Assembly: GCF_009389715.1 (NCBI RefSeq)
Contig: NC_052409.1
Location: 6,683,605-6,747,604 of the forward strand
From: Phoenix dactylifera
Taxonomy: Eukaryota > Streptophyta > Magnoliopsida > Arecales > Arecaceae
Length of the DNA: 64,000 nt
Direction: 5' to 3'
Below are positions 1,943-51,300 of this stretch, one piece after another. The translations under genes and the position numbers were made by a program. Under the pieces are notes generated by a model. That model did no database searches, was not told where the DNA came from, and saw only the letters and a program-made list of their open reading frames with translations. How positions within the stretch are numbered: the first letter of the stretch is position 1; every line of letters starts with the position of its first letter.

Positions 1943-4900
1943 AAAAGACCATGTGGAAGAGCTTGTGTTTGGTTTAGAGTTGGTGAGTGAGTTCTTCATG
2001 GAACGCATTTTTTGCATTTGTAAACTAATCAATTGCAAAGCTAATAGACATTTGCCATGTGTTAGGCTATAGAAACTTCCTGCATATAATGTTATAGAGG
2101 ATTTACACACTTCCCTCCTATGATTGCAGTTTTATAAAAATTCAAACTTAGCTTCAGCTTCATTAGTTAGGAAGTAATCGTATTCAAATGAAGAGTGAAG
2201 TTTAGGTCTGGATGCTCAATCCTAATGAATGCCATAATTTGAGGTGGTGCTATAGCATAAATCAAGGAGTCAAGCCAGACTCACATGGTTATAGTGTGTG
2301 CACTGAGGAGCACCCACCATGTACCGGAAATGGCCCACTGTATTCAGCCAAGTGCCTTGTGGATATACCCTACTTTGGATAAACATTCATATCCCATATA
2401 TCCTATGTCAGGTTAGTCCTCTACAGAAACAAGGTTTATCTCCAGGTACGTATCACGAATGGTGAGTACTTCTTGCATTCTATGGTTTTGCACATAGCTT
2501 GTGCCCCTCTCCTTATGTTTTTTTTCCTAGCATTCACTCAATCTAGCAGCCCTGCTCAAGAGAACTTGGTTCGGATTTCTTCACTTGAGACCCAACTCCT
2601 GTGCTCATGTAATACCCTTCATTTTCACCACCTTTAGCCCAACCAACTTCTAACATTATCCTCAAATTAAGGACCTAACAAATGGCTATCAAGTTGCGTT
2701 AATGAAATATTTAGGAGAACGCCTACTGCATTGTACTTTTTTGTGTGCACAAACTTCATTGTGCTATGTAGGGTCCAAAGAAAGAACTGCATGCTTTGTT
2801 GAGAAGGATATCAATGGTGTTCTGAACAAGATTAATACTTGAGTTCTCATGATTTGTTTCTTTATTCAATCTACTACCTGAAGACTGATTTCAAAAATAA
2901 TTTCACATTTTACCAGGATGATAACATGCGTGCGCTTATATCGATCCTAACAATATATTTTAATGCAGCTTCGAGCCTTTGACCGAGCATATTTTTTCGC
3001 ATGAAGAATATGTAGCACTCTGTTAGGATTAAAGTGCATGCATTTGAATCTGTTTCTTGTGTCAAGTAAATATGCTTCCGATCTTCGTAAAAGACAGTGC
3101 AGTTGGCTTAACTAACAGTTAGCTTCTTGATGCTCCAATGGAAGTCATGTAAGCTTTGCTCATTTTTCATTCCACTTCATGGAGTTCAAATGACCCAAAA
3201 ATAATTGATTAGGCAATACGTCCTTCATCTGCAACTAATAAAGTTAAATTCTTTTAGATCAAACAAACAAACAAGCAAATAAAGATAAATCTTGAGATAC
3301 AGCTTGTTTAGGAGAACTGTTGTCCTGTAAAGCTTCAACTTTCGTGATAAGTTCAAGGCCAATTGCTGGTCTATAAAATTGCCTATGTGACCTGATCATG
3401 CTAAAACATCTGGAGATCCAGATTCTCCATTTTCTTTTTGTCATTGAACATCACTGCTGATATTTTAGGCTTCTTGCATAACACCTAACCTATATCATGT
3501 TGAATATAGGGCTTTCATTCTGCTTTGTCCTGTGCCCTTTTCAAATTTCATGTCCTTTTTGACTATTCCACCCTAAATATGAATGCCCAGATCATTTAAA
3601 TGTTGATTCACTTTATCATAAGAAGTGATGATCCAAAATTGCAGGCAATAAATCTTCGTTTTCTAAATAGTAGCACCCTACAAGCAAGAAGAAAAGGGCA
3701 TCCATGGTAAAATTTAGAAAATATCAATGTTTGAACTTATCATACTAGCAAACTAACATCTTGGAGCTATCCCACTTGCTAACATGTTGTTTACAGAACC
3801 TGAAGCATGAAATAACAATGTATTCGAGCCCAGTTTATTATAGAAACTATAGAATAGCTGAAGGATTAATCTGATGAAGATCAACCTGCAAAGAAGAATA
3901 TTTGAAGACAAACGCAATCTGCTCTGAATTTATGTTTGATTACTTAATATATAGAATTAACTTCTTTTGCTATGTGTACTACTATATCCATCTTATGACT
4001 TTCTAGGATCTTTTCTGAGTTACCAAGGATCTGGCATCCAACATGATCTGCTTTGGATCTTAGTTGAATCAGTTTGATAGATATATAGGAAGAGTTCCTG
4101 TTACTGCTTGTATGTCAACTTCCAGTTGATGACTCATTAGTTCTGAGCAAATTATGACATACTAGTTTTGGTTTCATTTATGCTAAGATTCCCAGTCTCT
4201 CAGTTTCCCATTGAATCTTAAGCTTGGTAAGCCCCATTATGTCTTCCAAACTAAGCTCTTTGCTATGACAGGATTAGACAGAGAGCTCTTCAGCTTTTAC
4301 AAAATGCCACACTTTACTGTTCAAATCTTTGTTGGAATGGGTCTAGATAAAACCAAAGAAGCTTCAAGAGATTTGAGGAGACAAAGAAAGAAAAAATACA
4401 GCATGCACAGATTTCCATTTCTCGAAAACAAACGTACACTAACAAGCAATAATGGAGCAGAGATTCAACCATAATAAAAAAGATGGAGCATAACAATAGA
4501 GCCTCATCTCAACAAACCCTAACCCTAATATGCCCGTCTTTCAATACTTTCCTAAAACAAGGCAAAAGATATGTATATCAAAATCGGATCAAATATGTAT
4601 TATAGGATCACGCAAAAAATTCTCTAAATTTGTCTAATTGAATCATAAAATGGGGCGATCAAGAAATTTAAGCCACACTTAATATTCCTGAATATTGTGC
4701 TTCAAGGTAACTCATTTTCATTTCATTTGATAATAGATATTCCTTTGCTCATGACCAGATTATTCTTCATGTAAACTTGAACTTTATGGGTAAACGACCA
4801 CGTACTTTTCCAAAACTCCTTATCAATCCTCCATAGAATTAGTACTAAGAAAGGTTCCTTGTCTCATTCCTTGCGGTTATCTCGCTGACCAAACAAAACA

Positions 4901-9919: not shown

Positions 9920-10372
9920 AAATTTTTTTATATGAATACCTTTCTAAATATTAAATATTGCATGAATACCCTTTCAAAATTAATATTGACATGTATACCT
10001 TCATAAAACACTTATTTTACTATTCTAATCTTTTCTATCCTTGTTTTTGCATATGTGCCCACACAATCTAATGCCGTTAAAAAATTAACGGTTTCAAATT
10101 AAAATAACTAAAAATACTTTTAATAGGTAGACCGTGCAAGGAGAAGTATTTATAAGGCGATCGTGATGGAAGATAAAAAAATAATTTTAAAATTCTATTT
10201 TATTTGTAATTAAAATATATAGTTTTTATTAACAATGTTAGAAGAATCATTATATTATAGACATTTGTGCAAAAACAATATTTTATGAGGATATACAAAT
10301 AATTTAAATTTTAAGAGGGTATTCGTATAAATTTAAATTTTTAGAAGAGTATTTATGAAAAAAAAAACTAAA
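9920..10372. mobile_element. Foldback MITE-like element, copy 1 (interrupted)
   Basis: The left arm has spaced repeats of the type GCATGAATACCCTTTC and ACATGTATACC (9930-10010). The right arm carries their inverted counterparts (GAGGATATACAAA, GAGGGTATTCG, GAGTATTTATG; about 10,290-10,365). The centre has AATGCCGTTAAAAAATTAACGG, related to the centre of the copy at 40,753-41,040. Extra sequence at roughly 10,165-10,270 makes this copy longer than its relatives, so it probably has a secondary insertion. No coding capacity is visible. Confidence 0.6.
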
Positions 10373-11158: not shown

Positions 11159-11223
11159 AATGTTCAGTTCCTATTATTATCAATTATTATTATATTGTAT
11201 CTTTCTTCATGATGTCAATTGTT

Positions 11224-11290
11224 GGATCGCAATATGCACAAATCTCAAAACACTCCGAACTCTTTCGTTCATTTGCCGCGATCTAATGGT
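11224..11290 (+). repeat. Orphan partial monomer of the 97-bp satellite
   Basis: The segment contains GCACAAATCTCAAAACACTC, then CGAACTCTTTCGTTCATTTG and CGATCT, matching about two thirds of the 97-bp monomer arrayed at 39,625-40,530, in the same orientation. It lies about 370 bp upstream of the NOA1 start codon. Confidence 0.6.
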
Positions 11291-11409
11291 TGATGTTCTT
11301 TTGCGCAAAAGATACAAACCAAACCCACATTTTCATTGTTGTTGCTTTCTTTTTTTTCTTTTTCTTGAGAACGTTCCTTTGTTGGTGCTATCCCAAACAA
11401 TGTTGGACC

Positions 11410-19200: not shown

Positions 19201-22150
19201 CTTGTCTATGCTGTTTAAAATTAATGTTTAGATTGTTTATGGATTGCTTATTTACATTGTTTGCATTTCCTAGGAAAAGAGAGAAGCAGTATCTATAAGG
19301 CACATGATAGCTAATATAGTGGAAAAGATGGTAGAGAAGATAGTTCTGCCAAATTTATTAATTCTGGCTTCTACTTTTAGCATACACTTCTTGAAATTAT
19401 TGTTTTAGCTCACTTGGATTTTCTTTTTATACACCAAAACTTTCCTTCTTGTGTCTTATCACATTTATGTATCTTTGTGGGATACTGTCATGATTATATT
19501 GCTTATAGCATTATCTGACAATCATGTTGTCTGACTAACCTCCAGTCAGAAACTCACCAGAGCAGCAAATAAAAATAAAATGATGCTATGAAGTTGTTTT
19601 TAAAAAAAATTCTGTTTTTTGGAAATCATTTATTTTTCTATGAATGTAACAAACTTGTCTTTTCCATAGTTTTTTAACACATCAAGTAGCTGCTCCGTTT
19701 CATTTGCAGATTATGATATATGTTAGCAGAAATTATTGAGATCCTGTACTTGGAACGAAACAATGATTTGTAGTGTATTTGTTAATGACAGAAATTATTT
19801 GACACACCTGGAGTGCATCTTCACCATAGGCAGGCAGCAGTTGTTCATTCTGAAGATCTGCCTTCTCTTGCACCTCAAAGTCGTCTAAGGGGACAATCGT
19901 TCCCTGTATGTTTGTCTTTCCTTTTTCATTATTTGTTGGATATTGCAAAAAGCACTGGCATGTTAATCTGCTTTCTCAGAACGTTTTGAAAATGTTCAGG
20001 CACTCTCAAGGAAGAGTACATTGAAGGATACCGATGATGTTGGTTTAAATGGATTTTCATTATTCTGGGCTGGGCTTGTTCGCATTGATGTTATTAAGGT
20101 TTCCAGATTATCAGCATTAACTTTATAGTTTTTTAGAGCGGTCCTTAGGAATTTATAATTTTGAGTAGTTGCAGCTAATTATGTAATGAAAATGCAGGTT
20201 CTTCCACAGACACGACTAACATTCTATGGGCCCAAAAAATTGCAGATTCATATGGTTCCGACTGTTGAAGCAAATGAGTTTTACCATGTAATATCACAAT
20301 CAGTTTATGAGTTATTTGCCTCTGTTTGGTTAATTTGCTGTCTTTCTTTTGCCAATAAATTTATTTCCTTATCTAATTGAAGTGCGTGTTGTCTTCAATT
20401 TCTGTGTTTAATGTGTTGAATTCTTTGTACAGTTGTATGCATATTTTTTTGGTACAATATTAGTTTGATTAAAGTAACTGCTGAAACTGCATGACATTTG
20501 GTCTTCCACAAAATGCAGTCCTTCAAACCACTGAGCTATGACTATTTTTGGTAGACATTGTCACTAATTAATGTTCCATAAGGCAGTAATTAATGTACGA
20601 AAGGTGTTACTAGCAAGAATTGTCATACTGGTACTTCTGTTCATCACATGGAGACATCACATTGATTTTGAAGAAGTTTTATAGAAAAACTAAGTAAATG
20701 AATCTTATGCATTTATCAAATTATCAATTCACAAATGACCTTTGTGTGTGTGTTTTAGGGGTGGGAAGGGGGTGTGTAGGACACAGATGGGCATCTATTA
20801 GGTCACAATTTTTTTTTTCTGTAGCAGTTGAAGGAACAAAGGTCTCAAATTAATCCCCCATCTTGCGTATAATGTTGTCCGTTTTTTTATTAGGTAATGC
20901 CTGTCACCTATTTCTTATAAGTTTTGAACTTCCTATGGCTTAATTTTTTCCTAATTTTTCAGAAAGAGCTTGGAATTATTTTGACGCCTCCAACTAGTAA
21001 AGAAAGAGCAGAATCCTGGATTGGACTAGAAGCAGTACGTCATTTGCAGATAAAATTTGAAGACCAAAGGAGGTATTTTTCTATAGTACTAGGATTTTGA
21101 TGAACTATTTTAGTGATCGAGTTGATGCCACATATGGATACGTGCAACATAATGGAGTACGCTTCATATGGTTATTTCTTTGAAAAAAAATGTTAACTAT
21201 GAAGTCATAATTTTTTTGATATATAGAAGTCACGAAGCACAGCAGGGTGGAAGTGACAGCAGAATTGTCTGATAATAAGAAAATCATATAGTTGAGATGT
21301 GATCACCTGACTAGCAAACACACACTTGCAAAGCCTTGCCCTTGACTCAATCGGGAATACCACTCATCATATACTAGTACAGTTTATTTTGAAATTGCCT
21401 TATGATATCCACATATCAGAAAGCGAAGTTCAAGATGCCTATACTGTCATGCATAATAAGACAGTAAAAGCAGGGCATCGCTTTTCGGAGCATTGTCGCC
21501 AAGCTAAAATTATCAGGAGACAAGTATGTTAAACGTCATTACAATTAAGTTTTTATGCTATTAAGAGATTGACCACAAAGAAGAGGGAAGAAACAAAAGA
21601 TTGTGTGACATTTGTTGCACTCATATATGCAAGGCGCATATTGAACAAATCCATGTTCAAACTTTTGAAATATTTTTTTTTGTATATAAATGTGCTACAT
21701 GGTATCTTGTTAAGTCGTTACGGTCAAGCTTAGATTCTCAGGCGAAATAGAAATGATCTCCATTTTTATTCATGAGCATCTTTCTGTACTATGAGAGTCT
21801 GTTAATGGAGATTTTGAAAGAAGTGGATTGATAAAAAAAAATTCGAGAACCTTTTAGCAGTAGGGTTCTAACTGTTCATGCTTCTATCCTTGTGCAGGCC
21901 TGCTTGTGACATTGCGATTTCTGGTCTGGGGTGGATAGCTGTGGAACCAATTGGCATGCAACTTGAGACTGATTCAAACAATGCCGAAGATGATAGCATG
22001 AGGGAATTGCATTTGTCTGTACATGTTCCCAAGCCAGTGGAGATTTTTGTCCGGACCCCAATGCCTGTTGGTAAAGCAGGTGGGGACTGGTATCATTATC
22101 AAGAATTGACAGAGAAAGAAGAAGAAGTGCGACCTAAATGGTTTTATTGA
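11657..22150 (+). CDS. NOA1: NOA1/RIF1-like circularly permuted GTPase, chloroplast
   Basis: Thirteen coding exons join in frame to 558 aa: 11657-12046, 12684-12869, 14517-14603, 14712-14791, 15794-15875, 16635-16655, 16812-16857, 18157-18275, 19792-19905, 20000-20098, 20198-20287, 20963-21072, 21898-22150. All have GT-AG borders. The N-terminus (about 1-60, Ser/Thr/Pro/Ala-rich) looks like a plastid transit peptide. A YqeH-type zinc motif follows (CYGCG at 105-109, CGRC at 142-145). GTPase motifs come in permuted order: G4 TKID (220-223), G5 TSSKS (255-259), G1 GSANVGKS (283-290), G2 PGTT (321-324), G3 DTPG (341-344). The C-terminus ends RPKWFY. Length and sequence closely match rice NOA1. 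Members are not nitric-oxide synthases; they bind GTP and support plastid ribosome assembly and translation. Exon 6 is a 21-bp microexon. BPG2-type relatives are the alternative, but this protein is shorter and more NOA1-like. Confidence 0.92.
16160..16247. repeat. (TA)44 microsatellite in NOA1 intron 5
   Basis: An uninterrupted TA dinucleotide run of 88 bp lies about 390 bp before the microexon. It is likely to vary in length between individuals. Confidence 0.97.
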
Positions 22151-28167: not shown

Positions 28168-28852
28168 TGTTTGAAAGCCTAGAAAGCTTGCAGTGCTATA
28201 CTCGTCCTCTTGAATTTGTTCCTTTCTTGTCATACCGTGCGATAATAGTGGATCATTGTACTTAGCAGTCATTATGACAAAAGCAGGTCTTATTTTATTA
28301 TTATGTGAAGTCCTTTGATCACGGTGTTTCTTCTTAATATCTGGTGCAAGGATTCCTTTTTGTCAGGTAACCCAGATGGAAACCTTGGGCCGTATTTCTT
28401 ATGGCGATAATCATATGGTGATGGTGTCTGTCCGCTCACTCTCAGTAAAGGGGAATTTTTTTTTTTTCAAATGTTTAACTGTCATAGCACTAGACAATGA
28501 GTTGTGCTTGGAGTAAGCTTCTGGTAGTCCTGTTGTGATGGGTTGGTTGAATCCAAAGTCGGGTCAGGCCATGACGACGGCTGGACTATTTTTACATGTA
28601 TGTTATCTTCTCCATCAGGGCATCAGGTTATGCATGCTGCTTTCTCTCATCCTGAGTTATTCTCCTCTTGTCAATTGGCTTCCTCTGTACATTATGCCCA
28701 CTGAGGCTCCGGGACCTCTTTAGTCTTTTATGGTGCTTTTTCTTGACCATCTTTGGTTTTGTGAGAGATGGTGGTGGAGCTGGCTTCACTGCTTGCAAGG
28801 AAGGTGGTCAAGTATCATTTGCAAATTTAATTTGTGTTCTTATAATAAGTTC
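28168..28852. other. RBM48 3' flank
   Basis: Probable 3' UTR and downstream sequence. The frames here (for example 28,535-28,940) show no family resemblance and no exon borders. No gene is called. Confidence 0.45.
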
Positions 28853-29385
28853 AAGTGCTTTGAGATTTGTGCAATGGGTAATCTTTAACTATGGCCCATA
28901 TGCTAAGGGTGCTTTGAGATCTATGCAGGTGAATAAATAAAGGCATTCGATGTATTTTAAGATATGCACGGTGTTAAGTATAGTTCATATACTAAGGATG
29001 CTTTGAGATCTGTGCAGGAGGAGGAATGAAGAGGTTTGGAGTGCTTTGAGATATATGTGATGGGTGATCGTTCCCTATAAGATATGTGCAAATGGATGAA
29101 TAAAGATGTTTAGAGTGTTTTTAGATCTATGCAACGTGTAATCTGGTTATGGGTCATGTACTAAGAGTTTTTTCACAAACAATTGATATGTAGGATAGTT
29201 TGGTCATAATACACTTTTATGCTACTATGTGACGGCCATGCGGCATCATTTTGTTAATAGAGATGAAAGACATGATTGGTTTGGAATAATTTAGAAACTT
29301 AAAGAATCTATTTGAAATTTTTTAAAGTTGAAGTTGACGGGGTGTCTTTAGGATAGACTTTAAGTTGGGATGCTGTCCCTAGCCT
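28853..29385 (-). mobile_element. Truncated, inverted copy of the satellite-bearing TIR element
   Basis: 28,853-29,170 contains the complement of about three 97-bp satellite monomers (GTGCTTTGAGATCTATGCA and variants, with ACTATGGCCCATATGCTAAG linkers). 29,230-29,385 matches the terminal region of the element at 39,366-40,721 in inverse orientation: TGTTAATAGAGATGAAAGAC, then TTTGAAATTTTTTAAAGTTG and GGGTGTCTTTAGG. The far terminal repeat is missing, so the copy is truncated. Confidence 0.7.
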
Positions 29386-30309
29386 CCCTATAATTTTTTT
29401 TTTTAAATAAAATACAGAACTCTATACCTTTTTTTTTTAATCAAAACTATACTATATTGATAAGGTATTAGTGTCAATGATACATACTGAAGATAGCATT
29501 TAAAAAATTAAAAAATTATTATTACCGACTTGAACAATGTGTATAATATTGCCGGTATGCACCAATATGGATAGATATATAAGCATAGTTAAATACCTAT
29601 CGGCACACAGCTATTTTTCTATCCTAATATCTTTATGGTGTCGGTTTCGTGCTGGAGCGTTGCAGTATTGATTGTATCATCCCCTTTTAATTATTTTTGA
29701 AACTGTGATTACCATATGAAAATATAATTTATCCAAAAGAAAATATTTTTCCTAACATTTGCTAGAAGCCTAGAACCCATGTTGTTAATTTATTTTCCCA
29801 TAAAAAATAAACGAGAAGATGAAAAACATATTGACATTTGCTTCAATCTTTTTCTACCATACTAATATACCATCCCATGGAAAACATAGCTATGTAAGGT
29901 GCCGTCACTTCTATTATTTTTTTCAAAAATTTTGAGACAAATTGATATTTATAACATGCATACAAATAGAAAATCCAAAGTAAAGAAGAAAATATGCCCA
30001 ACTCCAGGAGTGGAAGGTGAGGATATACTTGAAATGTTGTCGTATCACTCCCTCTAAACTTTGGTAACTACAATGACAACCTTCGCCATCCAAATTCTTC
30101 CTGTCTTTAATAATGCATATCAGCCTGTATCTATTACTTTAATACCTTTACTAATTAGCCTTTTCTAATTAACTTCCAATATCTCTGCCCTGCCCCTGAG
30201 CAAACCCCCCAAAACAACACTCCCCAGTCCCCAATGCTCCATCCCCAGCTCTTTTCTATATCTCTTCTAAGACAGCAGAAGGCAGCTACAGACACAAGCA
30301 AATAAGAAA
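29386..30309. other. Intergenic, upstream of the C2H2 gene
   Basis: AT-rich with poly-A/T tracts. C-rich sequence at 30,185-30,250 and CTATATCT at about 30,257 may be core promoter of the zinc-finger gene. Nothing else is recognised. Confidence 0.4.
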
Positions 30310-30327: not shown

Positions 30328-30379
30328 AGTCTCCAACATCTCCATTGCCAAAAAAAAGGCTGGAAAAAAAAACTCCCCG

Positions 30380-30403
30380 ATGTTTATCCATGGGAAGCCA
30401 TAG
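30380..30403 (+). other. uORF 2 overlapping the C2H2 start codon (7 codons)
   Basis: ATG at 30,380, TAG at 30,401-30,403, peptide MFIHGKP. It is out of frame with, and overlaps, the main ATG at 30,390-30,392. Ribosomes that start here pass over the main start, so this arrangement usually lowers translation of the main ORF. The overlap is seen directly; the effect is inferred. Confidence 0.45.
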
Positions 30404-31439
30404 ATGCAAGCTTTGCTTCCGGCGCTTCTCCAGTGGTCGCGCACTGGGGGGTCACATGCGCTCACACGTGACTCCCCGCCTTACCGGAGCTCCGCCCCTC
30501 CCCCCCTCCCCCTCCGCCTCATCATCCTCCTCCTCCGCCGCAGACGCGGCGGCGGAAGGCCTCGGCTACGGCCTCCGGGAGAACCCCCGAAAAAGCTTCC
30601 GACTTGTCGACCCGGAATTCTCCTCCTCCTTTGCCGCCGCTGACGGCGGCTGTGGCGGCGGCGGCGTCTCCTCCGTCGTCCAGGACCGCGAGAGCGAGAC
30701 CGAGTCCTCCCTCCCCCCGGCGCTCCGCCGCCTATCCAAGCGCCCCCTGGAGACCGCGGCGGCGGCGGCGGCGGAGGCTGAACCCCTCAGTTCCATCTCC
30801 GACGTCTCCTCCGAGGAGGACGTCGCTCGGTGCCTGATGCTCCTCTCCCGCGACTCCTGGGCCAGATCGATAGCAGGGGAGGAAGCAGAGGACCAGCAGT
30901 CCGGCGGTTGGGACGAGGCCAGGGAGGAGGACGAGGATTACGACGACGAGGACGGCGGAGACGGGGACGACGGGATCCGTGGCTCCGCCCGGTCCCGGCG
31001 GAGTGGGCGGCGGAGCGGGTACCAGTGCCGCACGTGCAAGAGGTTCTTCCGATCGTACCAGGCCCTCGGGGGCCACCGAGCGAGCCACAAGAAGGTGGCC
31101 GGCGGCGGGTGCGTCCCGGCTGCCGGCGGCCAGATCGGCGGAAAAGCCTTCTCCGAGGCCAATGCTGATAGGAATTCGAGCCTCCACCGCTGTCCCACCT
31201 GCTCCCGGGTCTTCAGCTCCGCCCAGGCTCTCGGCGGCCACAAGCGATCCCACCTCGCCTCCTCCTCCTCCGCCACCGCCGCCCGTTCCCCTCCTCTCCC
31301 TCCACCTCCTCTTTCTGCCAACAGCAGCAGCACCAACCTCAGCGGCAAGGGCTTCATTGATCTCAACCAACCAGCTCCATTGGAGGAGGAAGTCGAGCTC
31401 TCCGCTCTCTCCGACGCCACGGTGCTGCAATCCAAGTGA
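30390..31439 (+). CDS. Three-finger C2H2 transcriptional repressor, ZAT1/4/9-like
   Basis: An intronless 349-aa protein from ATG 30,390; the frame stays open upstream to about 30,345 but without another in-frame ATG. Three plant Q-type zinc fingers are seen. ZF1 (C6, C9, H22, H26) has RALGGH at the very N-terminus. ZF2 (C213, C216, H229, H233) and ZF3 (C268, C271, H284, H288) both have QALGGH. Between ZF1 and ZF2 are an L-box-like stretch (EEDVARCLMLLSRD) and a highly acidic region (about residues 175-195). An EAR repression motif, DLNQPAP, sits at 324-330 near the C-terminus. This order matches the ZAT1/ZAT4/ZAT9 group of C1-type zinc-finger proteins, nuclear repressors often tied to stress or development. 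The coding region is very GC-rich, with Ala, Ser and Pro runs. Exact orthologue is unassigned. Confidence 0.93.
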   Translation: MGSHRCKLCFRRFSSGRALGGHMRSHVTPRLTGAPPLPPSPSASSSSSSAADAAAEGLGYGLRENPRKSFRLVDPEFSSSFAAADGGCGGGGVSSVVQDRESETESSLPPALRRLSKRPLETAAAAAAEAEPLSSISDVSSEEDVARCLMLLSRDSWARSIAGEEAEDQQSGGWDEAREEDEDYDDEDGGDGDDGIRGSARSRRSGRRSGYQCRTCKRFFRSYQALGGHRASHKKVAGGGCVPAAGGQIGGKAFSEANADRNSSLHRCPTCSRVFSSAQALGGHKRSHLASSSSATAARSPPLPPPPLSANSSSTNLSGKGFIDLNQPAPLEEEVELSALSDATVLQSK

Positions 31440-34400
31440 CTTGGGAAGCAATCTGAGGTGAAGTTCGTCGAAACAAAGCCGAAATCCACCGAAAAATCTC
31501 ATCTTTACAACTGAATCCTGCGCAAAGGAATCCAATTCGAATTCACCTCATATCAAGTTCAAATTTTTATCTCGTTTTTTCCGAATTTGATCTGGTCCTT
31601 CAGTTACAAGTTGCTCACTGCGACACTGAACAGTAGAAGGAAGCATAGATCATCAAAATCATCAGAAAAAGAACTCTCTTTAAATTTGAATTGACTATTG
31701 TTACATATAGTTTTCATCCAAACTTGTTCTCGTGTCACCAGTTTCAATTTCTTTTCAGTTATTAATAAAAAATTGATCTGGTTTTCGAGCTGCAGTTGCT
31801 CACTGCGTCAATCGAACATTAGAATGGAATTATAGACTATTGAAATTCCCAACATCTAAAAACAAACAAAAAAAAAAACTTCTCATAGAAATTCCTGTGA
31901 TTAAATTGAGTATTAATTAATTAATAGACGTCTCTGAGAAAAATTAATTAATGATGTTTGCTGTGTAACAAACGAAGAGTCGAAGTTGGTGTTGGTGGGG
32001 GAGCGCTGTCTCCAGCTGTGCTATGCTGGCTCTTTGGTCTTTGCTTTTCTCCCCGGCTATTTCTATATGCGCTTAGACCCTCCCCTGAAGTGAAAATAAC
32101 AGTCGAGGGACTAAGTTCGCTGACATCTCTCGCTCGTCGCTGAGAACTTTAGAGCAAAGAGACCCTCCTTTCGTTTCCCTTTTGTTCTTTTTTCTTTTAA
32201 TATGCCATTATTGATGCCGTAGTGGACAAGCTGTTTTGCATTTCTCACTTTTATTTCACTTCAGGGTCCTTCCGTTATCCAACCCCTAATTTACTGCCAT
32301 TTATTACTATTTGACTACTGCCATTTAATGTTTAGTCCATTTTATGTTTCAATCTCTATATACAATTAAGTTTTTGTTTCACTATGCAATTTTTGACCTA
32401 TAATTGAAACCTGTTTCCTATTTCTCATTTTACTTTATTTATATTTAGAATCCTTCTTTTATTTAGCACTTGATTTATTGTCCCATTCTCGCTATAAAAT
32501 TACTTCCATCTCAATATTAGGGGTGGGCAAACCCCAACATGGTTTAATGCCATTTAACATTGTTTAGCTGATATTTGATATCTATTTGGCTTTATAGTAT
32601 TACTATGTTATTTTGTGTATATATATATATTAGTACAATGTGTATATATATATATATATATTAGTACAATATGTTATTTTGTGGATATGATTGCAGCATA
32701 CAAAATCAAAAAAAAAAAGATAATACAAAAGGTAAAACACCGTAGTTTTTTTTAGATGAAGCCTTCAGAATAATGAGCCACCTAGTTAGCTGTGGACATG
32801 TATGGCCGATGAAAATTACTCATTTAAGAGATCATAGATATTGTGGAGCAGCGGTACAGAGCCATATATATTTTCAAACAAAGTTATAACACTTATAAAT
32901 GGTTAATCAAATCAAGGATCCAGTAAAAAAAATAATTTTATCAATAAAGATTTAAATATAAAGTGATGTCAATTAACCTCGATTTCCCAACAGTAAAATC
33001 TGGTCATGCTTCATTCACCTGTCAAATCATAATGCATGCAAGCATGGACCAGAGGTGAACGGCAATTGAAACGCTCCTCTGGAATGTTTCCATTTACGGC
33101 TATGAAACATCCCCCAAATCATTAAATTCTGTATCGGGTACTGGGAGCAAGAAGAACGTGGAGGCGACGACCGGAAATAAATACGCTCTCTTCCAGTGCG
33201 GGTTCCGTTCACCCGACGGTAGATTTTCTCGGCTGTTCATCCGCCTTTCAAAACTTCCCAGATCCGACCAGGGACTTTGGTATCCATCATAAATGATGGA
33301 TATCTATCGAGTTGTTCTAAAATCTAAATAACGTAATCTTATCTTATCCTCTTCATAATTTTTATTATTATTATTATTGTCGTCGTCATCATTGTTGTTA
33401 TAGCTGGATTCCGTTGACATGGCGACCGGACTCTCCGACCAACGACTCGGTCCCGACGCGTGGAGTGGTGGTCCCATCGAGTGGACCTCTCCGCCGTACG
33501 TCCGATATCGGTTGAACCGCTAGGAAAGCGCACATTTCGCGTGAATCTCATCCCTTGTGGTCCCCATTTGCTGGTGAGAGGGTGCAAGTCTGGGTGCTAA
33601 CCAGGTGAAAGTAGAAATTATGTTACTTTTCTACGCCTTTTTTTATGGTACACCAGCTCACATGCAGCAGCAGGAGGTACGAATGCGGCCAATAAAATCA
33701 AAAAATAATAGCTCACTAAAAAGCTTTGATAAAAATTCTTGGTCTTCCTATATAAATTCTAAGTGGTGAGCAGCAAAAAAACGCAACCTAATCCGCCGCA
33801 CTATTCGCTAGACTTTCGTGGCCGTATAAAAACCACAATTTTTAAATAGTCGCAGACGTCGAAGAGCATTGGCCGTCTCTCCTAGCACCTCTCTGACTCC
33901 AGATCTACTCGAATACCGTTGCTGAGTCACTCTCAAAAAGAAGACGATTTGTACCTAAGATGCACCTCGCGAAAGTGATACTCTCTCAAGCAATTCTGAG
34001 CGCACAGACAGCAATCATGTCGAAGACGCATCGGCCCGACCGCGGTTGAAAGGTCAGCAGGAATGCTGAAAAGATTCGGCTAAATTACGAAAATGCTCCA
34101 GAACGGGGGATTGTCGCAGCACAGATCGCAAAGCACTCCATACTCATCATCGATCCGGTAGCACAGATTTCAAAGGGGATCAGTGGATGATCCAACGGTG
34201 CATTCGGGCGAAGAAAGCTGAATCCTTCCTTCTTCCGCGCGAAAGATACGCCCCCCGACATGGCGCAAGGCAAATTAATACGTTGGGCAACAAGAGCGGC
34301 ACAACTGGCGGAGAAACGCGTGAGAAAGGGGAGGGCGCTGAGAAGAGAGTGAAATCCCGTGAACAAATGCAATGCAAATCCCCGCAGTATCACCTCTCCC

Positions 34401-38690: not shown

Positions 38691-39347
38691 ATGAAACATT
38701 GCCCATATTGTCTTGCATCAATAATCTTTATTGAAGAGAAATTGAGGGAGAGGGGCTGGGTGGCTGCCCATGCGGCTCACCACTCAAGGTACACCCTCTC
38801 ATCAGAAGAGGGGGAGCTGCCACATGCACTCCGCAAATTAGTGTTTTTTGACTTTATTGGGTGTATTCGTACACGTATTGTATGAAGAACCGCTTCAGCA
38901 AAAAAAAAAAGAAAAAAAAAAGAAAGAGAAATTGAGGGAGACATGTTGGATTTTTTAGGGATGCACTATCCAAGAATGAAATCTAGAACTTTGGTTGCTA
39001 AGTAGAGGGGTGTGATCACCTGTGTATGCCCTAGTTCATGCAATTAGAAATTTATTAAGATAGATAGTATATTACGGTTAGGTTTAGAAGTATATCACTA
39101 TATTGAGCTACTCGATGAAACATTGCCCATACTATCTTGCATCAATTATTTTTTCTGAAAAGAAATGAAGGTAGACATATTATATTTTTGGGGATGCACT
39201 ATCCAAGAACCAAATTTAGATCTAAGTAGAGGGGTGTGACCACTTGTGCAAGCTCTAGTTCATATAATTAGAAATTTATTAAGATAGTATAATAGATAGT
39301 ATATTATGGTTAAGTTTAGAAGTATATCACTATATTAAGTTACTTGA
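38691..39347. repeat. Tandem duplication of about 233 bp, first unit carrying a LINE
   Basis: Unit A (38,691-39,114) and unit B (39,115-39,347) both begin ATGAAACATTGCCCATA and share GGGATGCACTATCCAAGAA and AGAAGTATATCACTATATT. Unit A is longer only because of the inserted LINE end and its duplicated target. Without those the units are about 234 and 233 bp. Confidence 0.88.
38752..38923 (+). mobile_element. Short 5'-truncated LINE insertion with 18-bp target duplication
   Basis: The insertion encodes only the end of the LINE RNase H domain (GWVAAHAAHHS, then GELPHALRKLVFFDFIGCI and RTRIV, TGA at 38,883-38,885). A roughly 18-base 3' UTR and an A-rich tail (38,900-38,923) follow. It is flanked by identical 18-bp copies, AAGAGAAATTGAGGGAGA, at 38,734-38,751 and 38,924-38,941. 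Extreme 5' truncation, poly(A) tail and long target duplication are the marks of target-primed reverse transcription. Confidence 0.88.
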
Positions 39348-39365
39348 ATAATTTAGAGAAGATTA

Positions 39366-40721
39366 TAGTGGCACCCTCTTAATTTTGGACACATCCTAGA
39401 GACTCTTTCTTAACTTTAAAAAGTTTCAAACCGACCTTCCAAATTTTTAAATCGTTCCAATACGGCCTCTTCGTTCATCTCTATTAATAGAACGGTAGCG
39501 TGTGATCATCACATGATAGCATAAAATGGGTATAGGACAAAAATACCCTTGATATGTATTAAATGGGATAGAACCTCACAGGATCTTTCGTGCGAAATAG
39601 ACTTACTGTTTGGCTTATAGTTAAGGATCACCCATTGCACAAATCTCAAAGCACTCCAAATCCTTTCATTCATCTACTTACATAAATCTCAAAAAACTCT
39701 TATTATATGACCCATGGTTAAGCTATAGAAATTCCTTCATTCATTTGACTGCACATATCTCAAAGCATCCTTAACATAGGATCCATAATTAATGATCATC
39801 CATGTGCGGATCTCAAAGCACTCTGGACCCCTTTAATTCTTCCACCTGCATGGATCTCAAAGGGCCCTTAATATACGACTCTTAGTTAAGGATCACCTAC
39901 CATACAATCTCAAAGCACTCTGAACATCTTTATTCATCCACGTACATATATCTTAAGGCATCTTTACTATATGACCCATAGTTTAGAATCACCTACTACA
40001 CAAATCTCAAATCAATCCAAAGCTCTTAATCCATCCACATGCACAGATCTCAAAGCATCCTTGCATGCGGACAATACTTAACAATCACCCGTTGCATAGA
40101 TCTCAAAGTACTCCAAACTCCTTCGTCCATCTGCCTTCATAGATCTCAAAGTATCATTAGTAAATGGCTTATAATTAAGGATCATCTAAGATGCAAATCT
40201 TAAAGCACTCGAGATCCCTTCATTTATTTGCTTGCCTAGATGTCAAAGCTTCCCTTAGCATATGTAGCCCATAAACTAAAGATCACCCACGGTAAATATC
40301 TCAAAACACTTTGAACTCCTTCATTCATCTGCTTGCAAAGATCTTCAGAGCACCCTTAGTATATATCTTATAGTTAAAGATCACCAACCGCACAGATCTT
40401 AAGGCGCTCTGAACTCTTTTATTCATCCACCTACATAGATCTCAAAGCATCCATAGTATATGACTCATAGTTAAGGATCACCCATCATATAGATCTTAAA
40501 GCACTCCGAATTCTTTAATTCATCGGTTAGAAGACATCCATAGATGTTTGAAGAGAGTGAGGGTATTTTGATCAGTTCTAATTGTAGGCTAATAGTGTTG
40601 GTTGGTTAGAGAGCTGGAGGACTGCTTTGGAATGATATGAAAACTTGGAGGATCAATTTGAAATTTTTTAAAATTTAGGGGATGTCTTGGGGACACATCC
40701 AAAGTTGAGGAGGTATCACTA
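39366..40721. mobile_element. Non-autonomous TIR transposon with satellite body
   Basis: The left end begins TAGTGGCACCCTCTTAATTT; the complement of the right end reads TAGTGATACCTCCTCAACTT. Similarity continues for about 110 bp inward (AAAAAGTTTCAAACCGACCT against AAAAAATTTCAAATTGATCC). Between these long inverted repeats are a 97-bp satellite array and short unique flanks. No transposase is seen. Long TIRs suggest a Mutator-like element, but no matching 9-bp target duplication was found, so the superfamily is open. Confidence 0.72.
39625..40530 (+). repeat. 97-bp tandem satellite, about 9 units
   Basis: The marker CTCAAAGCACTC or a variant starts at 39,645, 39,812, 39,909, 40,006, 40,102, 40,199, 40,300, 40,398 and 40,495. 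Steps from the second on are 97, 97, 96, 97, 101, 98 and 97 bp. Each monomer holds a second half-unit with ATAGATCTCAAAGCATCC, a GACCCATAGTTAAGGATCAC linker and a CTTCATTCATCTGCTTGC-like spacer. The first interval (167 bp) reflects a partial deletion. Confidence 0.93.
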
Positions 40722-40752
40722 ATTTTTTTTCAAAATAATATAGGTTTTCTGC

Positions 40753-41040
40753 CTACATACCCTCCTAAATATTAGAATTTGCATGAATACCCTTTCAAAA
40801 TTGATATTTGCATGTATACCATCATAAAACACTTGTTTTGTATGTATACCCTTCTTTTTTCTTATTTTTTGCATAGGTTCCATGTCATCTAACGTCGTTA
40901 AAAAGTTACTGGTTTAAAATTAAAATGATGAAAATATCCTTAATGGGTAAAATGCAAAAAGAAATATTTATAAGGGTATACATGTAAATAGCAATTTTGG
41001 AGGATATTCATGTGATTTCATATAGTTAGGAGGGTATACA
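40753..41040. mobile_element. Foldback MITE-like element, copy 2 (best preserved)
   Basis: Two arms of about 95-100 bp (40,753-40,852 and 40,945-41,040) are inverted repeats: the left starts TACATACCCTCCTAAATATT, and the complement of the right starts TGTATACCCTCCTAACTATA. Each arm is made of three sub-repeats of about 30 bp ending in ATACC or ATACCCT after a GCATG/TATG. The 92-bp centre contains TAACGTCGTTA. No coding capacity. Confidence 0.75.
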
Positions 41041-41065
41041 CACAGAGAAAAATCATCAGATTTTT

Positions 41066-44759: not shown

Positions 44760-47700
44760 ATGGCATCTCCTCCTCCGTTCCAGGCGGAGGACCAGACGGA
44801 CGAGGATTTCTTCGACAAGCTCGCGGATGATGAGTTTACGATCGATGGATCTCAGTCCAGGGCTCCGGATATGGCGAAAGATTTGTCTAATCTCAGCCTA
44901 GGTGACGTTGGTACCTCGTTGGAGGATTCGGGAGAGGCTGGGCTTGCCTCCGAAGTGGAAGACCGGCAGGAAAACAGGACCTTGAAGTCTTCTTGGGCTG
45001 CCAAAAAGGACAGCTTGGATGCAGAAGGGAGCATGCTTTCTGATTCTTCTGATGATAAGGCAGTCCGATCGGACAGTTCTGCGGAGCCTGCTACTGAGAT
45101 TGGTTCGCAAGGTTCATCGACGATGAAGAGTGGTGGATCAAAGGGGACCAGTGTGAAAGAGGTGCAGTGGAGCGCTTTCAGTGTCAGCTCGCAGCAATTT
45201 GACAATGGAGGGTTTGAACCCTATTCCAACTTCTTAACTGAGAACGCTGATGGGTCTGCTAATAAGCTGAAAGCTGATGCTGACCCGAATTCTAGTTTCA
45301 TAAGAAACACGGATGAAAATCTAAATACATATGTTGGTTACTCTGAACAACAAGGCACCCAATTCTATAGCTCAGGTAACGAGCAGATGGCAGATGGAAA
45401 TGATGCACAGTATTGGGAAAGCCTTTACCCAGGTTGGAAGTACGACCCAGGTACTGGGCAGTGGTATCAAGTGGATGGTTATGATACAGGCATCACTGGA
45501 CAAATGGACAGCTATAATGCAGCGAGTGTAGCCCAAGAGAGCTTTGAAGAGAAAGCTGCTACTGTTGCTGATGGGCCTATTCTTGAGGGATCCAATGTTT
45601 CTTATCTGCAGCAAAGTGCTCAGTCAGTGTTGGAGACCATAGCAGAGGATAGTACATTGAGTAGTGTTTCTAACTGGAATCAAGTTTCTCAGGAGAGTAC
45701 AGAATTCCCATCTAATATGGTGTTTGATCCTCAATACCCAGGATGGTATTATGACACAAACACTCAACAGTGGTATACCCTTGAGTCATATACTCAGACC
45801 ACACAGATAGCATCTAGTACAGTTCAGGATGAGGTGACTCGAGTTGTGCATTCCTCAGCTGGTTTCTCAGAACAAAACCAAAGTTTATATGATGAAGTTG
45901 GCCAATCCGGCCAATACTCCGTTTGGAGCCAGGGCAGCCAAGATTTTGGAGGAGTTTGGAATTCTTCCACAAGTAACTACATGCAACAGAGTATGTGGCA
46001 GCCTGAAACAGTTTCTGATAATAAACACATTGGAGATTTCCCTGGAAATCAGCAGTTGAGGAGCTTTTACAGTTCAACAGGGCATGCAGGAAGTCAAACA
46101 GATCAACAAGCAGGTCTCAAGACCTTTGAGCCCTCTGTAGATCATAACTATGTCAGAAGTAATGGTGTGGCCAGGTCTCAGGGCTTTGTTCCTCACGAAA
46201 GCACATACCAGTTTAATCAGCCAAAGGGGGAGCAGGGCCTGCAGTCACATTTATCTAACAGTTATTATGGCAGTCAGAGCTCAATAGACTATTCTCAGCA
46301 ACCATTTCAGGGTGCTAATGCGTCTTATTCTCAGTTCTCTTACACTCCTCATGAAGGGAGATCATCAGCTGGACGTCCTGCACATGCATTGGTTACCTTT
46401 GGATTTGGTGGGAAACTCATAATCATGAAAGATGCCAACTCTTTTGGCACAATTGATTATGGAAGCCAGGTGGGCTTCAAACATGTTTCACTTCAATCTA
46501 GCTAATAAGAATCATTATTAATTGTTTTAGAAACTTTCAGGTTTTGCTGTGATTTTGTAAGATCATTCAAGAGTAGCCTTTCTCCAACTAAACCTTGTTT
46601 ATTTGTGCATTTTAAGGGCACTGCTGCTGGAGCAGTCTCAGTTCTAAACTTAGCAGAAGTTGTCATGGATAAAACTGATGCATTCAGCACCATTAGTGGT
46701 GGTGCCTTTGGTTACTTGCATTCTTTATGCCAACAATCCTTTCCTGGTCCGCTTGTTGGTGGGAATGCTGCAACAAAGGATATAAACAAATGGATCGATG
46801 AGAGGATTGCGAGTTGTGAATCTCCTGGCATGGTCTTCCAGAAAGGCGAACTTCTGAGATTACTTCTTTCATTACTGAAAATATCATGTCAACATTATGG
46901 AAAACTTCGATCTCCTTTTGGATCTGATCCTTCACTAGAGGTAGTCGTTCTCTTATCTTAATGCAATATTAAATTTTTAGTATATCTTATTGCAGTTAGA
47001 TGATTTCGTCTTGAAATTATCTATGCATTTAGATCTTTATCCTTTCTTCCTGCTTGTGCAATTGTGTTTCACAGTTTACATATTTTCCTCTCAATCTTCT
47101 TCTTCATGTTAAAAAAAATGGTGATCTGTTGGATCATTTATGAACTTCTACAAAGTTTCCACACATTCCCTTTTTCATAAATTTTGTCTGGATCTACTTG
47201 AGCATCTTCATTATTTTGCTGGGAATACTCATTTTTCTTCTGCAAAACGTGCACCTCCTAATGCTTGTTGAGGTAAAAGAGAGCTCTGTGCCTGATTATA
47301 TTCTTGTGTAATTCCTTTTTCAAACTAAAATACAAAGTTGTGCTGGAAAATAGCCAATTCAAAAGTATCATGTTTGCATAAGAGATATAGACTCGTTCTA
47401 TTCTTTTCCTTATTTGTATGCTTCTAATAACAAAGTTACAATAACCCATGCCAATGTTAGAGGCCTTATGCCCAAACCACTTTGAGGCTTAAGCCTTTAC
47501 CTTTGGAGGCTAAGATGTCTTGCTGCTGCCCTTAGTCTGTCAGAAACCACATGAATGCTACAGAGAATTGCTTTCTATACTCATAGTGCTTCTAGTCAAG
47601 GTTGAAATCTGACCTTTTACCTGTTAACTCCCATCCCAATTAAGAAGAGAGTAGAAAGGCATCAGCTGTGTACCTTCTTGGGTTGCAGTTGGACTGAATT

Positions 47701-48394: not shown

Positions 48395-51300
48395 ACATAT
48401 TTCCAAACCCAGTTTGAGCCCAAAGTAGAGATTGCACTAAATCTTTCTCTTTTCTTCCCGATTTTTCCACTAAAGATCGCCAACAAACCAATTTAAGTCA
48501 TAATTCTTGCGTCCAGACAAAGAGATCAGAGAGAAACAAAATCCAAATTCTTCCGTGAAGATTCCCAAGTTCCCATTTGAAACCTAAAATTCGAGTGCAA
48601 TCGAAGAACCTAAACATAAATTTCAAGATTTAAAAATGTTTCACACCTCTTCCAGGGATCGAAAGCCCTCAGATCGCGATGGGGGTGAGGAGGGGAAGAT
48701 CATTCGTACCTCAAAACCTAGCTTCGCCGACAATAGGGTGGTCGGGGCTCCTCTTCACCACTTCGCCGAGCTTGGACGGTCGACGACGACTGGCGATCGG
48801 CGACGAGCCGACAAGGAGAAGCGGAAAAACCCTAGCTCCACGCCTCCACCGCTCGTCCGCTCTGCGCCTATGCAAATCCCAACCAAAAGGAAGAAGATCA
48901 TTCGTACCTCAAAACCTAGCTTCGTCGACGATAGGGTGGTCGGGGCTCCTCTTCACCACTTTGCCGAGCTTGGACAGTCAACGACGACGACTGGCGACCG
49001 GCGACGAGCCGACAAGGAGAAGCGGAGAAACCCTAGCTCCACGCCTCCACCGCTCGTCCGCTCTGCACCTTTGCAAATCCCTCGGGCAACAACCAACTGG
49101 GTAGTCTGGGTTTAAGTTAAACCGCGATTTGGCAAACCCCTGTGATTCGGCAAACCGCGATTCGGGCTACTCGGGCTGGAAGTGGGCTCGGGCTGGGCCG
49201 GGCCGGGCCAATGAGATACCCGTGCCCGGCCCGAAATAGAAATGGGCTTAATTATTCAGCCCGAGCCCGGCCTGAAATGCATTGGGCCTAGCGCATAGCC
49301 CGGCCCGCGGGCGGCCCGACCCGATGGGCTTCGGGCCAGCCCGAGCCCACTTCCAGTCCTATTTGTGTTATATCTCTTGTGTTGCATTAATGCTTCATCA
49401 AATGATCAATAAATGGGTGAATGACCTCTAGCCCATCTAAAGAAGCATGAGAAACAGATTCTGTTTTTCTAGCTCTAGAAATGACCGTAAACATGAGAAT
49501 GTGCAAGCACTCGAAACTATTCTAGAACACTTCATCCGTAATTCCTTTTAACCACTAATAAACACAAGGAGAACAAAAGTGTCAAATTACTGTATGAAAC
49601 CAAGCTACTTTATCCACAAGATTTCGGGGCATCAATCTTTCTTGATACTGAATGTTCATATTTTCTGAGCCGCTAGTTCAGTCAAATTAATTTGAAGCAT
49701 TTTAAAGTGCTTCATGTGGGTGTTTGCCACTCTGCTTCAATGTTTTATCCCCCCCCCCCCCTCCTCCTCCTCAAACAAAAACAAACAAACAAACAAAAAA
49801 AACGGACTCTTAAAATGCCTTGCAAGAAGCCCCTTTAACTAATTCTTTAACAGAAACAAATTCTTGATCAAGAACTTGTTCCCTAGGTGTCAAAATAACA
49901 AGTTGAAGCATGCTACTGATTGCATTGGGGGATCAAAAGGCGCTATGGTATATCAAAATAGATGATTTAAGTAGGAAGCAGTTGGTGCATGGGAATGGAA
50001 ATGGAGATTGGTTTGGTTAATCATGATAGGAAAGTCAGAAGTTCTGCTGAAGGCATGTTAAAGGAGATTATTTGAAAATGATGGAATATAGCTGTAAATT
50101 ATAATTATTTGCATTAACAATCTTGAGGTCTTTGCTAGCTTGACTTGCTCGGAGTTTAGGGAAGCAGGATTTTATTTTTGAAAGCTAGAAAATGTTTAGA
50201 TCTGTTAAATTTGAATATAAGCAACATTGTAGGATTGATGTTGGACAAAAATAAGGTGATTGTTAGCAGAACTATGTAGAATTTAGAGCAAAAACAGCCT
50301 TTTCAAAATGCATTAAACATTTAGAAGATCAGTTTTGGAGGTTTAAGACTGATAACTATAGATGAAAAAGGAAATTTGATTTAATAAAATGCCCATATAA
50401 GGGAATAAAGGCAAGCTTGTGTGCTTATAGATATTATATCATGGAACATCGGCATCTTGGGTTGGAGGGAAACAAAAAACAGAACCTCTTTGTGCATGCT
50501 AATAGCGTGTTTTTTTAGAAGACTGCCATTATAGGTTCAAGTTAGAAGCATTGTTGAAAAGAAAAGATATTCTTTTTATCCAGCGGAGTGCCAGTGGTAT
50601 GGGTGAGTGCCACCCTTTGATTCGAGACATCCGGGCCATGATCTGTGGCGAGGTGGCATTCCAGGCTAAGCATGTTTATAGAGAGGCCAACTAGGCTGCA
50701 GACTAGGTGGCTTTATAAGTGGCCAACCACTCCGGAGATACCCTTTATCGGAAAGAGGGAGTTGCCCAGTGCGCTCTATGATAAGTTGTCTTTTGACTTT
50801 TTTGAATGTATCTGTGTTAGAATTGTATGAATCATCTATTTCAACCAAAAAAAAAAGAATATCTCTTTTTCATTTAAACAAGGTTTATGCTATCTGGAAT
50901 ACTTTATTGTTGGCAGGCCACCATGTTTGGATAATAACTGCAATAAATGATTTTGATGACTGGGCTTGGAGAGTGAATGAGGATTTGAGCATTATATATG
51001 AGTTCTTTTGGGAAAAAAATTGAGGAGTGCTGAAAACATGAAAAGAGTAAAAGACTTCATCAAAGGATTGAATATTTGCCTTAAGGAAACTAACAGAAAT
51101 TCATGCAATAAAAGAAATGAGAGAGATTTGCAAACTTGTATAAGGGCAAAAGGAAAAGAAGAGAAAACAAAATTTTGATAATAATGAAGGCACACACAAT
51201 CAAAATACAATTCAGGTGGAAGATCTTCTATTAAGGGAAGCTAATGCTTTATATCAAAAATAAAGAACAAGTTTTTGATAGGGGTGTTGTTGGGGCATAA

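What the first reader, a model, noticed from the sequence alone, without database searches (positions are those of the whole stretch)
39366..40721. A TIR transposon whose body is a 97-bp satellite array
Long (about 110 bp) inverted terminal repeats enclose some nine head-to-tail 97-bp monomers and almost nothing else. A second truncated copy (28,853-29,385) has the same satellite plus the same terminal region in inverse orientation. The satellite therefore travels with the element, and the element may act as a seed for genomic satellite arrays. The lack of an evident target duplication leaves its superfamily open.
Basis: partly seen in the sequence, partly recalled or inferred. Interest (0 to 1): 0.72.

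Follow-up and report, generated by a model that had tools for sequence, protein, structure and literature searches.

The report
Mutator transposon stuffed with tandem repeats
This is one old, decayed copy of a family of plant jumping genes of the Mutator type whose inside is a short row of 97-base repeats, and the repeats appear to be copies of the middle of a second, smaller jumping gene.

Summary
Window 39,356-40,731 is a complete, non-autonomous element: imperfect inverted ends of about 190 bp around ten 97-bp monomer hits. With ends GGRAAAATTATAGTG, 14 complete members share 9-bp target duplications as a group (window copy 8/9; 0 of 2000 re-pairings as good), so it is Mutator-like (MULE).

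The 97-bp array travels with these ends: 14 of 14 fetched loci found with the monomer alone carry them. The ends also travel without it: 10 of 32 end-found loci show no monomers, and one holds a captured cyclin-like gene piece.

The "satellite seed" idea is not supported: no 97-bp array seen exceeds about ten monomers, and monomers are as alike between elements (71%) as within them (71%). Only 40 of 211 monomer candidates were scored.

The monomer matches the core of a separate ~205-bp MITE, itself with 9-bp duplications; two copies lie in the window (34,038-34,255; 11,201-11,312). The same core forms 43-bp arrays in a second element type.

Best reading: a MULE acquired an inner MITE fragment, multiplied it in tandem, dispersed and decayed. 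Arrays inside transposons are a known kind; the MITE source and second carrier are the new part.

The parts
39347..39355 (.). left target-site duplication AATAATTTA
   Evidence: 8/9 to 40734-40742; test over 14 elements; letters checked
39356..39560 (+). left terminal inverted repeat (L type), outer letters GAGAAGATTATAGTGGCACC
   Evidence: TIR profile 133.5 bits; 34 family ends laid side by side
39581..39625 (+). junction stretch resembling the left arm of the MITE (ATCTTTCGTGCGAAA against ATCTTTCGCGCGAAA)
   Evidence: highest of 28 L junctions, score 35, 0 of 300 shuffles; post hoc, and part of the score comes from the array's own GGATCACC
39622..40547 (+). tandem array, ten 97-bp monomer hits (one shortened)
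   Evidence: TRF; profile
40550..40731 (-). right terminal inverted repeat (R type)
   Evidence: TIR profile 120.0 bits at 40563-40729; L and R types agree with array direction in 33 of 35 family ends
40734..40742 (.). right target-site duplication AATAATATA
28848..29143 (-). array of the second, truncated copy (about 4 monomer hits, the outer ones partial)
29186..29386 (-). L-type end of the second copy; its other end was not found
   Evidence: TIR profile 108.6 bits at 29216-29386; three-end profile 29186-29381
34038..34255 (+). copy of the separate ~205-bp MITE whose core resembles the monomer; no MULE ends
   Evidence: alignment score 184 against shuffle maximum 45; family
11201..11312 (+). 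diverged copy of the same MITE, ending 345 bp upstream of an ORF start at 11657
   Evidence: score 67 against shuffle maximum 33

Best explanation
The window element is a non-autonomous Mutator-like element (MULE), moved in the past by transposase supplied in trans. Its body is not host satellite DNA. It is a short internal array that grew inside one ancestral element from a fragment of another MULE-type miniature element (a ~205-bp MITE): the inner tip of the MITE's left arm plus its 67-bp core. The array was uniform when the element dispersed. Each copy has since decayed independently, with loss or gain of monomers (4-10 hits per complete array-bearing element) and little or no homogenisation.

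Shown: the ends, the 9-bp target duplications, genome-wide copies with fixed array direction, array and ends tied together, sibling elements without the array (one with a captured gene piece), and likeness of the monomer to the MITE core. Inferred: the MITE-to-array direction, acquisition by Pack-MULE-like capture or by nested insertion, growth by slippage or unequal exchange, and movement by a MULE transposase.
For: Target duplications: 14 complete elements (12 with arrays, 2 without), mean 7.29/9 matching against 5.35 for re-paired flanks (ends allowed to slip 3 bp), 0 of 2000 permutations as high; the excess is 1.74, 1.93 and 1.80 at lengths 8, 9 and 10; exact abutting 9/9 in L016 and L041, 9/9 with a 1-bp slip in L009.
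Family: 24 places for the left end and 21 for the right, window copy included in each; end pattern with up to 2 mismatches 51 hits against 4 for the reversed control.
Array tied to ends: 14 of 14 monomer-found loci, 8 of them with both ends in the fetched stretches; 22 of 32 end-found loci (L023 and L037 look like near-duplicates of each other); end type agrees with array direction in 33 of 35, 0 of 2000 label shuffles.
Timing: identity to own consensus is 77.6% for L ends (28), 77.3% for R ends (25) and 80.4% for monomers (123); monomer identity is 0.709 within elements, 0.713 at the same and 0.711 at different positions between elements.
Siblings: L009 carries 728 bp at 83% identity to a gene whose next exon hits Cyclin_N above the cut-off, a further one below it; L016 and L040 are two copies of one ~2-kb array-free element, 76% over 2,053 aligned bases.
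MITE: 20 loci fetched, 16 with monomer-profile hits at E<3e-6, 0 with MULE ends; the best of 97 rotations times two strands aligns collinearly with the MITE's inner part.
Against: No transposase with these ends was found: of 150 scored PF10551 hits the nearest lies 25 kb from any of the listed end or monomer places. Eight of 14 complete elements fall below 8/9 in the duplication test (one scores 4/9), and several flanks are A/T-rich. Nearest neighbours of monomers lie in the same element in 10 of 80 cases against 5.0 expected, which hints at slight local exchange. The last ~20 bp of the monomer match the MITE only weakly (242 of 5000 shuffles as good). Only 8 of 28 array edges, the window's included, show any likeness to the MITE's left arm at 5 or fewer of 300 shuffles, and that score is partly due to the array itself. 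The direction MITE to array is by parsimony only.
Confidence: 0.76

Rival explanations
1. The direction is reversed: a tandem array inside one MULE (perhaps the 43-bp form) came first, and the MITE core is a captured piece of it; 43-bp, 97-bp and MITE forms all descend from that array.
For: The MITE core is about one and a half 43-bp units, because its two AGATCTCAAAGC copies lie 43 bp apart; 43-bp arrays make up 5 of 6 fetched multi-hit clusters, with up to about 19 copies in one stretch.
Against: The 97-bp monomer includes GGATCACCCACC, which is the inner tip of the MITE's inverted arm, adjacent and in the same order. It is easier to explain as taken from the MITE than the reverse.
Confidence: 0.2
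2. The element seeds true genomic satellites; the window copy is one seed.
For: The array travels with a mobile element and varies from 4 to about 10 monomers. A comparable animal element has done this (Tetris, PMC4079207, abstract read). One fetched 43-bp array runs to the end of the stretch, so its full length is unknown (L081).
Against: No 97-bp cluster longer than about 1 kb among the scored matches; no clear homogenisation. Of the first 100 exact core hits 74 are isolated, but this is weak, since a decayed array often keeps one exact hit. Only 40 of 211 candidates were scored and satellites may be under-assembled.
Confidence: 0.08
3. Two unrelated insertions, or chance inverted similarity, rather than one element.
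For: The two arms of the window copy are only 54% identical.
Against: Many genomic copies with both ends, the same layout and 9-bp duplications.
Confidence: 0.01

Closest known systems
Mutator-like elements (MULEs) and Pack-MULEs of plants; MULEs with tandem terminal repeats (PMC3310237, passages read)
   Same: Long inverted ends, 9-bp target duplications (the MULE length is from recall, and stated for Tm1 in PMC3169594), no own transposase, siblings with captured gene pieces; complete members here are 829-2,073 bp, and the tomato Pack-MULEs in that paper are most abundant at 1,000-1,200 bp.
   Different: Here the body is a tandem array of an internal repeat. In PMC3310237 it is the terminal repeats that are duplicated.
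miDNA4 and Xstir MITEs of Xenopus (seen only as described in passages of the review PMC12628747)
   Same: A TIR element with an internal array of variable copy number; Xstir repeats may derive from the interior of a MITE.
   Different: Animal elements (miDNA4 is Tc1/mariner); for miDNA4 the authors suggest capture of a pre-existing tandem repeat. Here the source looks like a different MITE and the carrier is a MULE.
Tetris of Drosophila virilis (PMC4079207, abstract and outline read)
   Same: Transposon with internal tandem repeats of fixed period.
   Different: Tetris repeats lie in its inverted ends and have grown into kb-size satellite-like arrays; here they lie between the ends and no such growth of the 97-bp form was seen.
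Tm1 Mutator/Foldback family of root-knot nematodes (PMC3169594, passages read)
   Same: Mostly 9-bp target duplications, Mutator-like, variable tandem repeats.
   Different: Tm1 repeats are 13-15 bp and part of the ends.
Minisatellite-bearing MITE of Porphyromonas gingivalis (PMC4596501, start of abstract in a search listing only)
   Same: A tandem repeat inside a MITE.
   Different: Bacterial; otherwise not compared.

Membership tests
Mutator superfamily (MULE) | 9-bp target-site duplication | tested here: met
   14 complete elements, 0 of 2000 permutations, excess largest at 9; 8 of 14 individually below 8/9
Mutator superfamily (MULE) | long inverted ends (100 bp or more) | tested here: met
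   ends of about 170-190 bp
Mutator superfamily (MULE) | MULE transposase in an element with the same ends | tested here: inconclusive
   PF10551: 150 scored of 452 candidates; nearest 25 kb from a listed end or monomer place
Pack-MULE | captured piece of a host gene between the ends | tested here: not met
   Not found in the window element; met by its sibling L009
Satellite DNA | long arrays of homogenised monomers | tested here: not met
   about 10 monomers at most; within- equals between-element identity; only 40 of 211 candidates scored
Foldback element (Tetris type) | tandem repeats inside the inverted ends | tested here: not met
   monomers lie between the ends, in one orientation beside each typed end
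hAT / CACTA / Tc1-mariner / PIF | 8-bp, 3-bp, TA or TWA duplications | tested here: inconclusive
   lengths 5-11 tested, excess 1.74 at 8 and 1.93 at 9; 2- and 3-bp duplications not tested by statistics for this family

The most novel reading that the evidence does not exclude
Being inside a MULE favours tandem growth of acquired DNA. At least two MULE-like carriers with different ends independently took up the core of the same MULE-type MITE and multiplied it with different periods: 43 bp, the spacing of the core's own direct repeat, and 97 bp, the inner MITE.
Probability: 0.35. Interest if true: 0.62.

Novelty: new variant of a known kind. Interest (0 to 1): 0.42.

Why it matters
It settles the superfamily of an array-bearing plant transposon and gives a genome-wide set in which the source of the repeat (a MITE), the carrier (a MULE) and the tandem step can be separated. 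A second carrier with a different period makes the question of how tandem repeats start inside transposons testable by comparing related genomes. It also suggests that such arrays need not grow into satellites.

Tried and rejected
CACTA, hAT, PIF and Tc1/mariner readings of the ends were considered from the outermost letters and dropped once the family showed that the ends lie 10 bp further out and the duplication is 9 bp. The idea that the monomer came from a gene promoter (both isolated window copies seemed gene-linked) was dropped when the isolated copy proved to be a dispersed MITE. A MITE-left-arm origin for the last ~20 bp of the monomer was tested and not supported (1331 of 5000 shuffles as good), and the right-arm alternative is only marginal (242 of 5000). 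Rfam at gathering thresholds: 0 matches in the window. A scan of viral contigs for the monomer core found nothing. Pfam on the captured piece itself gave no match and a search of solved structures gave only an unrelated weak one; the cyclin identification rests on the parent locus's next exons. A search for the second carrier's ends in the genome did not complete. Papers: in eight searches no listed title or abstract start names a MULE with an array of this kind; this covers only the held open-licence library.

Rows dropped before counts: the MITE consensus used 15 of 20 loci (L069 and L071-L074 left out); the MITE duplication test used the 16 of 20 whose two ends both passed a score filter; end comparisons left out hits shorter than 100 profile positions; monomer comparisons kept near-full-length hits only (80 of 123 hits).

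Full report
What is there. At 39,356-40,731 two inverted ends enclose a row of 97-bp monomers. TRF reports the 97-bp period, and a profile built from this element finds ten monomer hits in it. The two ends are old: 54% identical over 172 aligned bases, yet far above chance (score 90, best of 500 shuffles 51, same-strand control 21). The second copy at 28,848-29,386 has one end only; it is the left type, and its monomers run the same way from that end. The end profile has no further hit in the 64-kb window at E<=0.01.

The true ends. With those ends the flanks of the first nine complete elements matched better than cross pairs (mean 7.44 against 5.56 of 9). With 14 complete elements the mean is 7.29 against 5.35. 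No re-pairing in 2000 was as good, the excess is largest at length 9 (1.74, 1.93 and 1.80 at 8, 9 and 10), and 6 of 14 reach at least 8/9 against 11 of 182 cross pairs. Eight of 14 do not reach 8/9, as may be expected for old copies. The window copy scores 8/9 with a 2-bp slip. This, with ends of about 190 bp, makes it Mutator-like.

The family. The left end finds 24 places and the right end 21, together 39 distinct loci besides the window copy; I fetched 32 of the 39. Of 32, 22 carry monomers and 10 do not within the stretch fetched, which was short for some. Two of the 22, L023 and L037, look like near-duplicates. One array-free member, L009, has a 9/9 target duplication (1-bp slip) and holds 728 bp at 83% identity to another locus whose next exon hits Pfam Cyclin_N above its cut-off, with a further exon below it. 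Two others, L016 and L040, are copies of one 2-kb element, 76% alike over 2,053 aligned bases. So these ends belong to a MULE group that carries different cargoes.

Does the array travel with the ends? A search with the monomer alone gave 116 matches from 40 scored of 211 candidates, in 36 short clusters. Ten of these were the window copy and loci already in hand; of the other 26 I fetched 14. Fourteen of 14 have at least one of these ends beside the array, 8 of them both (one of the 8 has a weak second end, 13.9 bits), while the same end profile gives 0 hits in 20 MITE loci. In 35 typed ends from the end-found loci and the window, the left and right types keep a fixed relation to array direction: 33 of 35 nearest neighbours agree, 0 of 2000 label shuffles as strong. 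The array was therefore most likely acquired once and copied.

No satellite behaviour seen. Monomers are 0.709 alike within an element and 0.711-0.713 between elements, with no effect of position (233 of 1000 permutations). A hint the other way: in an earlier set the nearest neighbour of a monomer lay in its own element in 10 of 80 cases, 5.0 expected. Identity to consensus is similar for ends (77%) and monomers (80%). So the array was nearly uniform at the time of dispersal and has mostly decayed since. The longest 97-bp array seen, at L050, spans close to 1 kb (about ten monomers) and ends in a right end. This does not support the view that the element now seeds satellites, within the limit that most candidates were not scored and long arrays may be missing from the assembly.

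Where the monomer came from. Two isolated monomer-like stretches in the window, at 11,224 and 34,117, have no such ends (model from the main element only, 29.0 and 23.7 bits, best of 30 simulated windows 11.1). The second, used as a query, found 49 matches (40 of 182 candidates scored) with a sharp boundary. Twenty fetched loci show a ~205-bp MITE whose consensus has near-perfect ~70-bp arms around a 67-bp core, and 9-bp target duplications (16 loci tested, mean 6.88 against 5.45, ends allowed to slip 5 bp, two exact). Sixteen of the 20 match the monomer profile at E<3e-6. Of all 97 rotations on both strands, the monomer fits the MITE best collinearly: the arm tip GGATCACCCACC plus the core. 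The last ~20 bp are unexplained. At the array's left edge the window copy shows the strongest likeness to the MITE's outer arm (0 of 300 shuffles); 7 of the other 27 junctions are at 5 or fewer of 300, one of them at 0, and the remaining 20 at 17 or more. These scores are partly due to the array's own GGATCACC.

A second carrier. A 15-base core word occurs 1,457 times with at most one mismatch against 64 for its reversal. Of the first 100 exact hits, 74 are isolated and 11 clusters hold more than one. Three of the 11 are elements already in hand; of six others fetched, one is this MULE and five are 43-bp arrays without its ends in stretches of 0.75-1 kb; two were not fetched. One of these, at C4:12,047,151-12,048,585, has its own inverted ends (score 99, shuffle maximum 70) and, read by eye in one element without a control, flanks AATCTTCAA/AATCTTCGA (8/9). 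Its ends are not significantly like the first family's (41 against shuffle maximum 41); beside another of the arrays the first family's end profile gives a weak 10.9-bit hit (L087), so a distant relation is not excluded. L078 and L083 share its flank, while the short flank of L081 does not. The 43-bp period equals the spacing of the direct repeat inside the MITE core. How general this is could not be tested: the search for these ends did not complete.

Mechanism, shown and inferred. Shown: mobility in the past, by copies and target duplications; superfamily signature; array fixed in the element; likeness to the MITE core. Inferred: acquisition by nested insertion or MULE capture, tandem growth by slippage or unequal exchange between direct repeats, and movement by a MULE transposase in trans. 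The genome has many MULE transposase domains (150 scored of 452 candidates, all above the cut-off), but none of the 150 lies within 25 kb of a listed end or monomer place.

Novelty. Internal arrays in TIR elements are known in animals (passages of PMC12628747; abstract of PMC4079207), 9-bp-duplication elements with repeats in their ends are known in nematodes (passages of PMC3169594), and MULEs with duplicated ends are known in plants (passages of PMC3310237). A MULE whose body is a tandem array of another MITE's core is a new variant as far as the listings of the searches show.

On recounting I re-ran the transposase distance with all 150 places (an earlier part-list had given 43 kb), followed one array that ran to the end of its stretch, and narrowed the second copy's array.

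Noticed in passing
C4:12047151-12048585 (L084, L079, L085); L078, L080, L081, L083: 43-bp tandem arrays of the same core motif, one in an element with its own inverted ends and an 8/9 9-bp target duplication.
   Followed up: partly
window 39581-39600: ATCTTTCGTGCGAAA at the array's left edge resembles the MITE's outer arm; most other copies have ordinary monomer-like sequence there.
   Followed up: partly
genome: Many PF10551 (MULE transposase) hits share the same score (97.4 bits) and a 394-aa open frame: looks like a young, recently active MULE family.
   Followed up: no
window 38940-39347: The left flank of the element contains an imperfect direct duplication about 230 bp apart (48 bp at 90%, the rest by eye); the element sits just beyond its second copy.
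   Followed up: no
window 40742-41050, also near 9936, 10309, 42216, 42453: Another short repeat family (ATACCCTCCTAAATATTAGAATTTGCATGAATACCC) abuts the element on the right.
   Followed up: no
L020 4345-4552: A family member with a tandemly duplicated piece of its left end, as reported for other plant MULEs (PMC3310237).
   Followed up: no
window 904-1944: 306-bp tandem repeat, 3.5 copies.
   Followed up: no
window 48695-49081: 201-bp direct duplication, 94% alike, within an open frame at 48636-49115.
   Followed up: no
window 30345-31439; 46509-46958; 21872-22147: Genes or gene pieces: C2H2 zinc-finger protein, Sec16 mid-region, and a weak YqeH-like C-terminal match below its cut-off.
   Followed up: no
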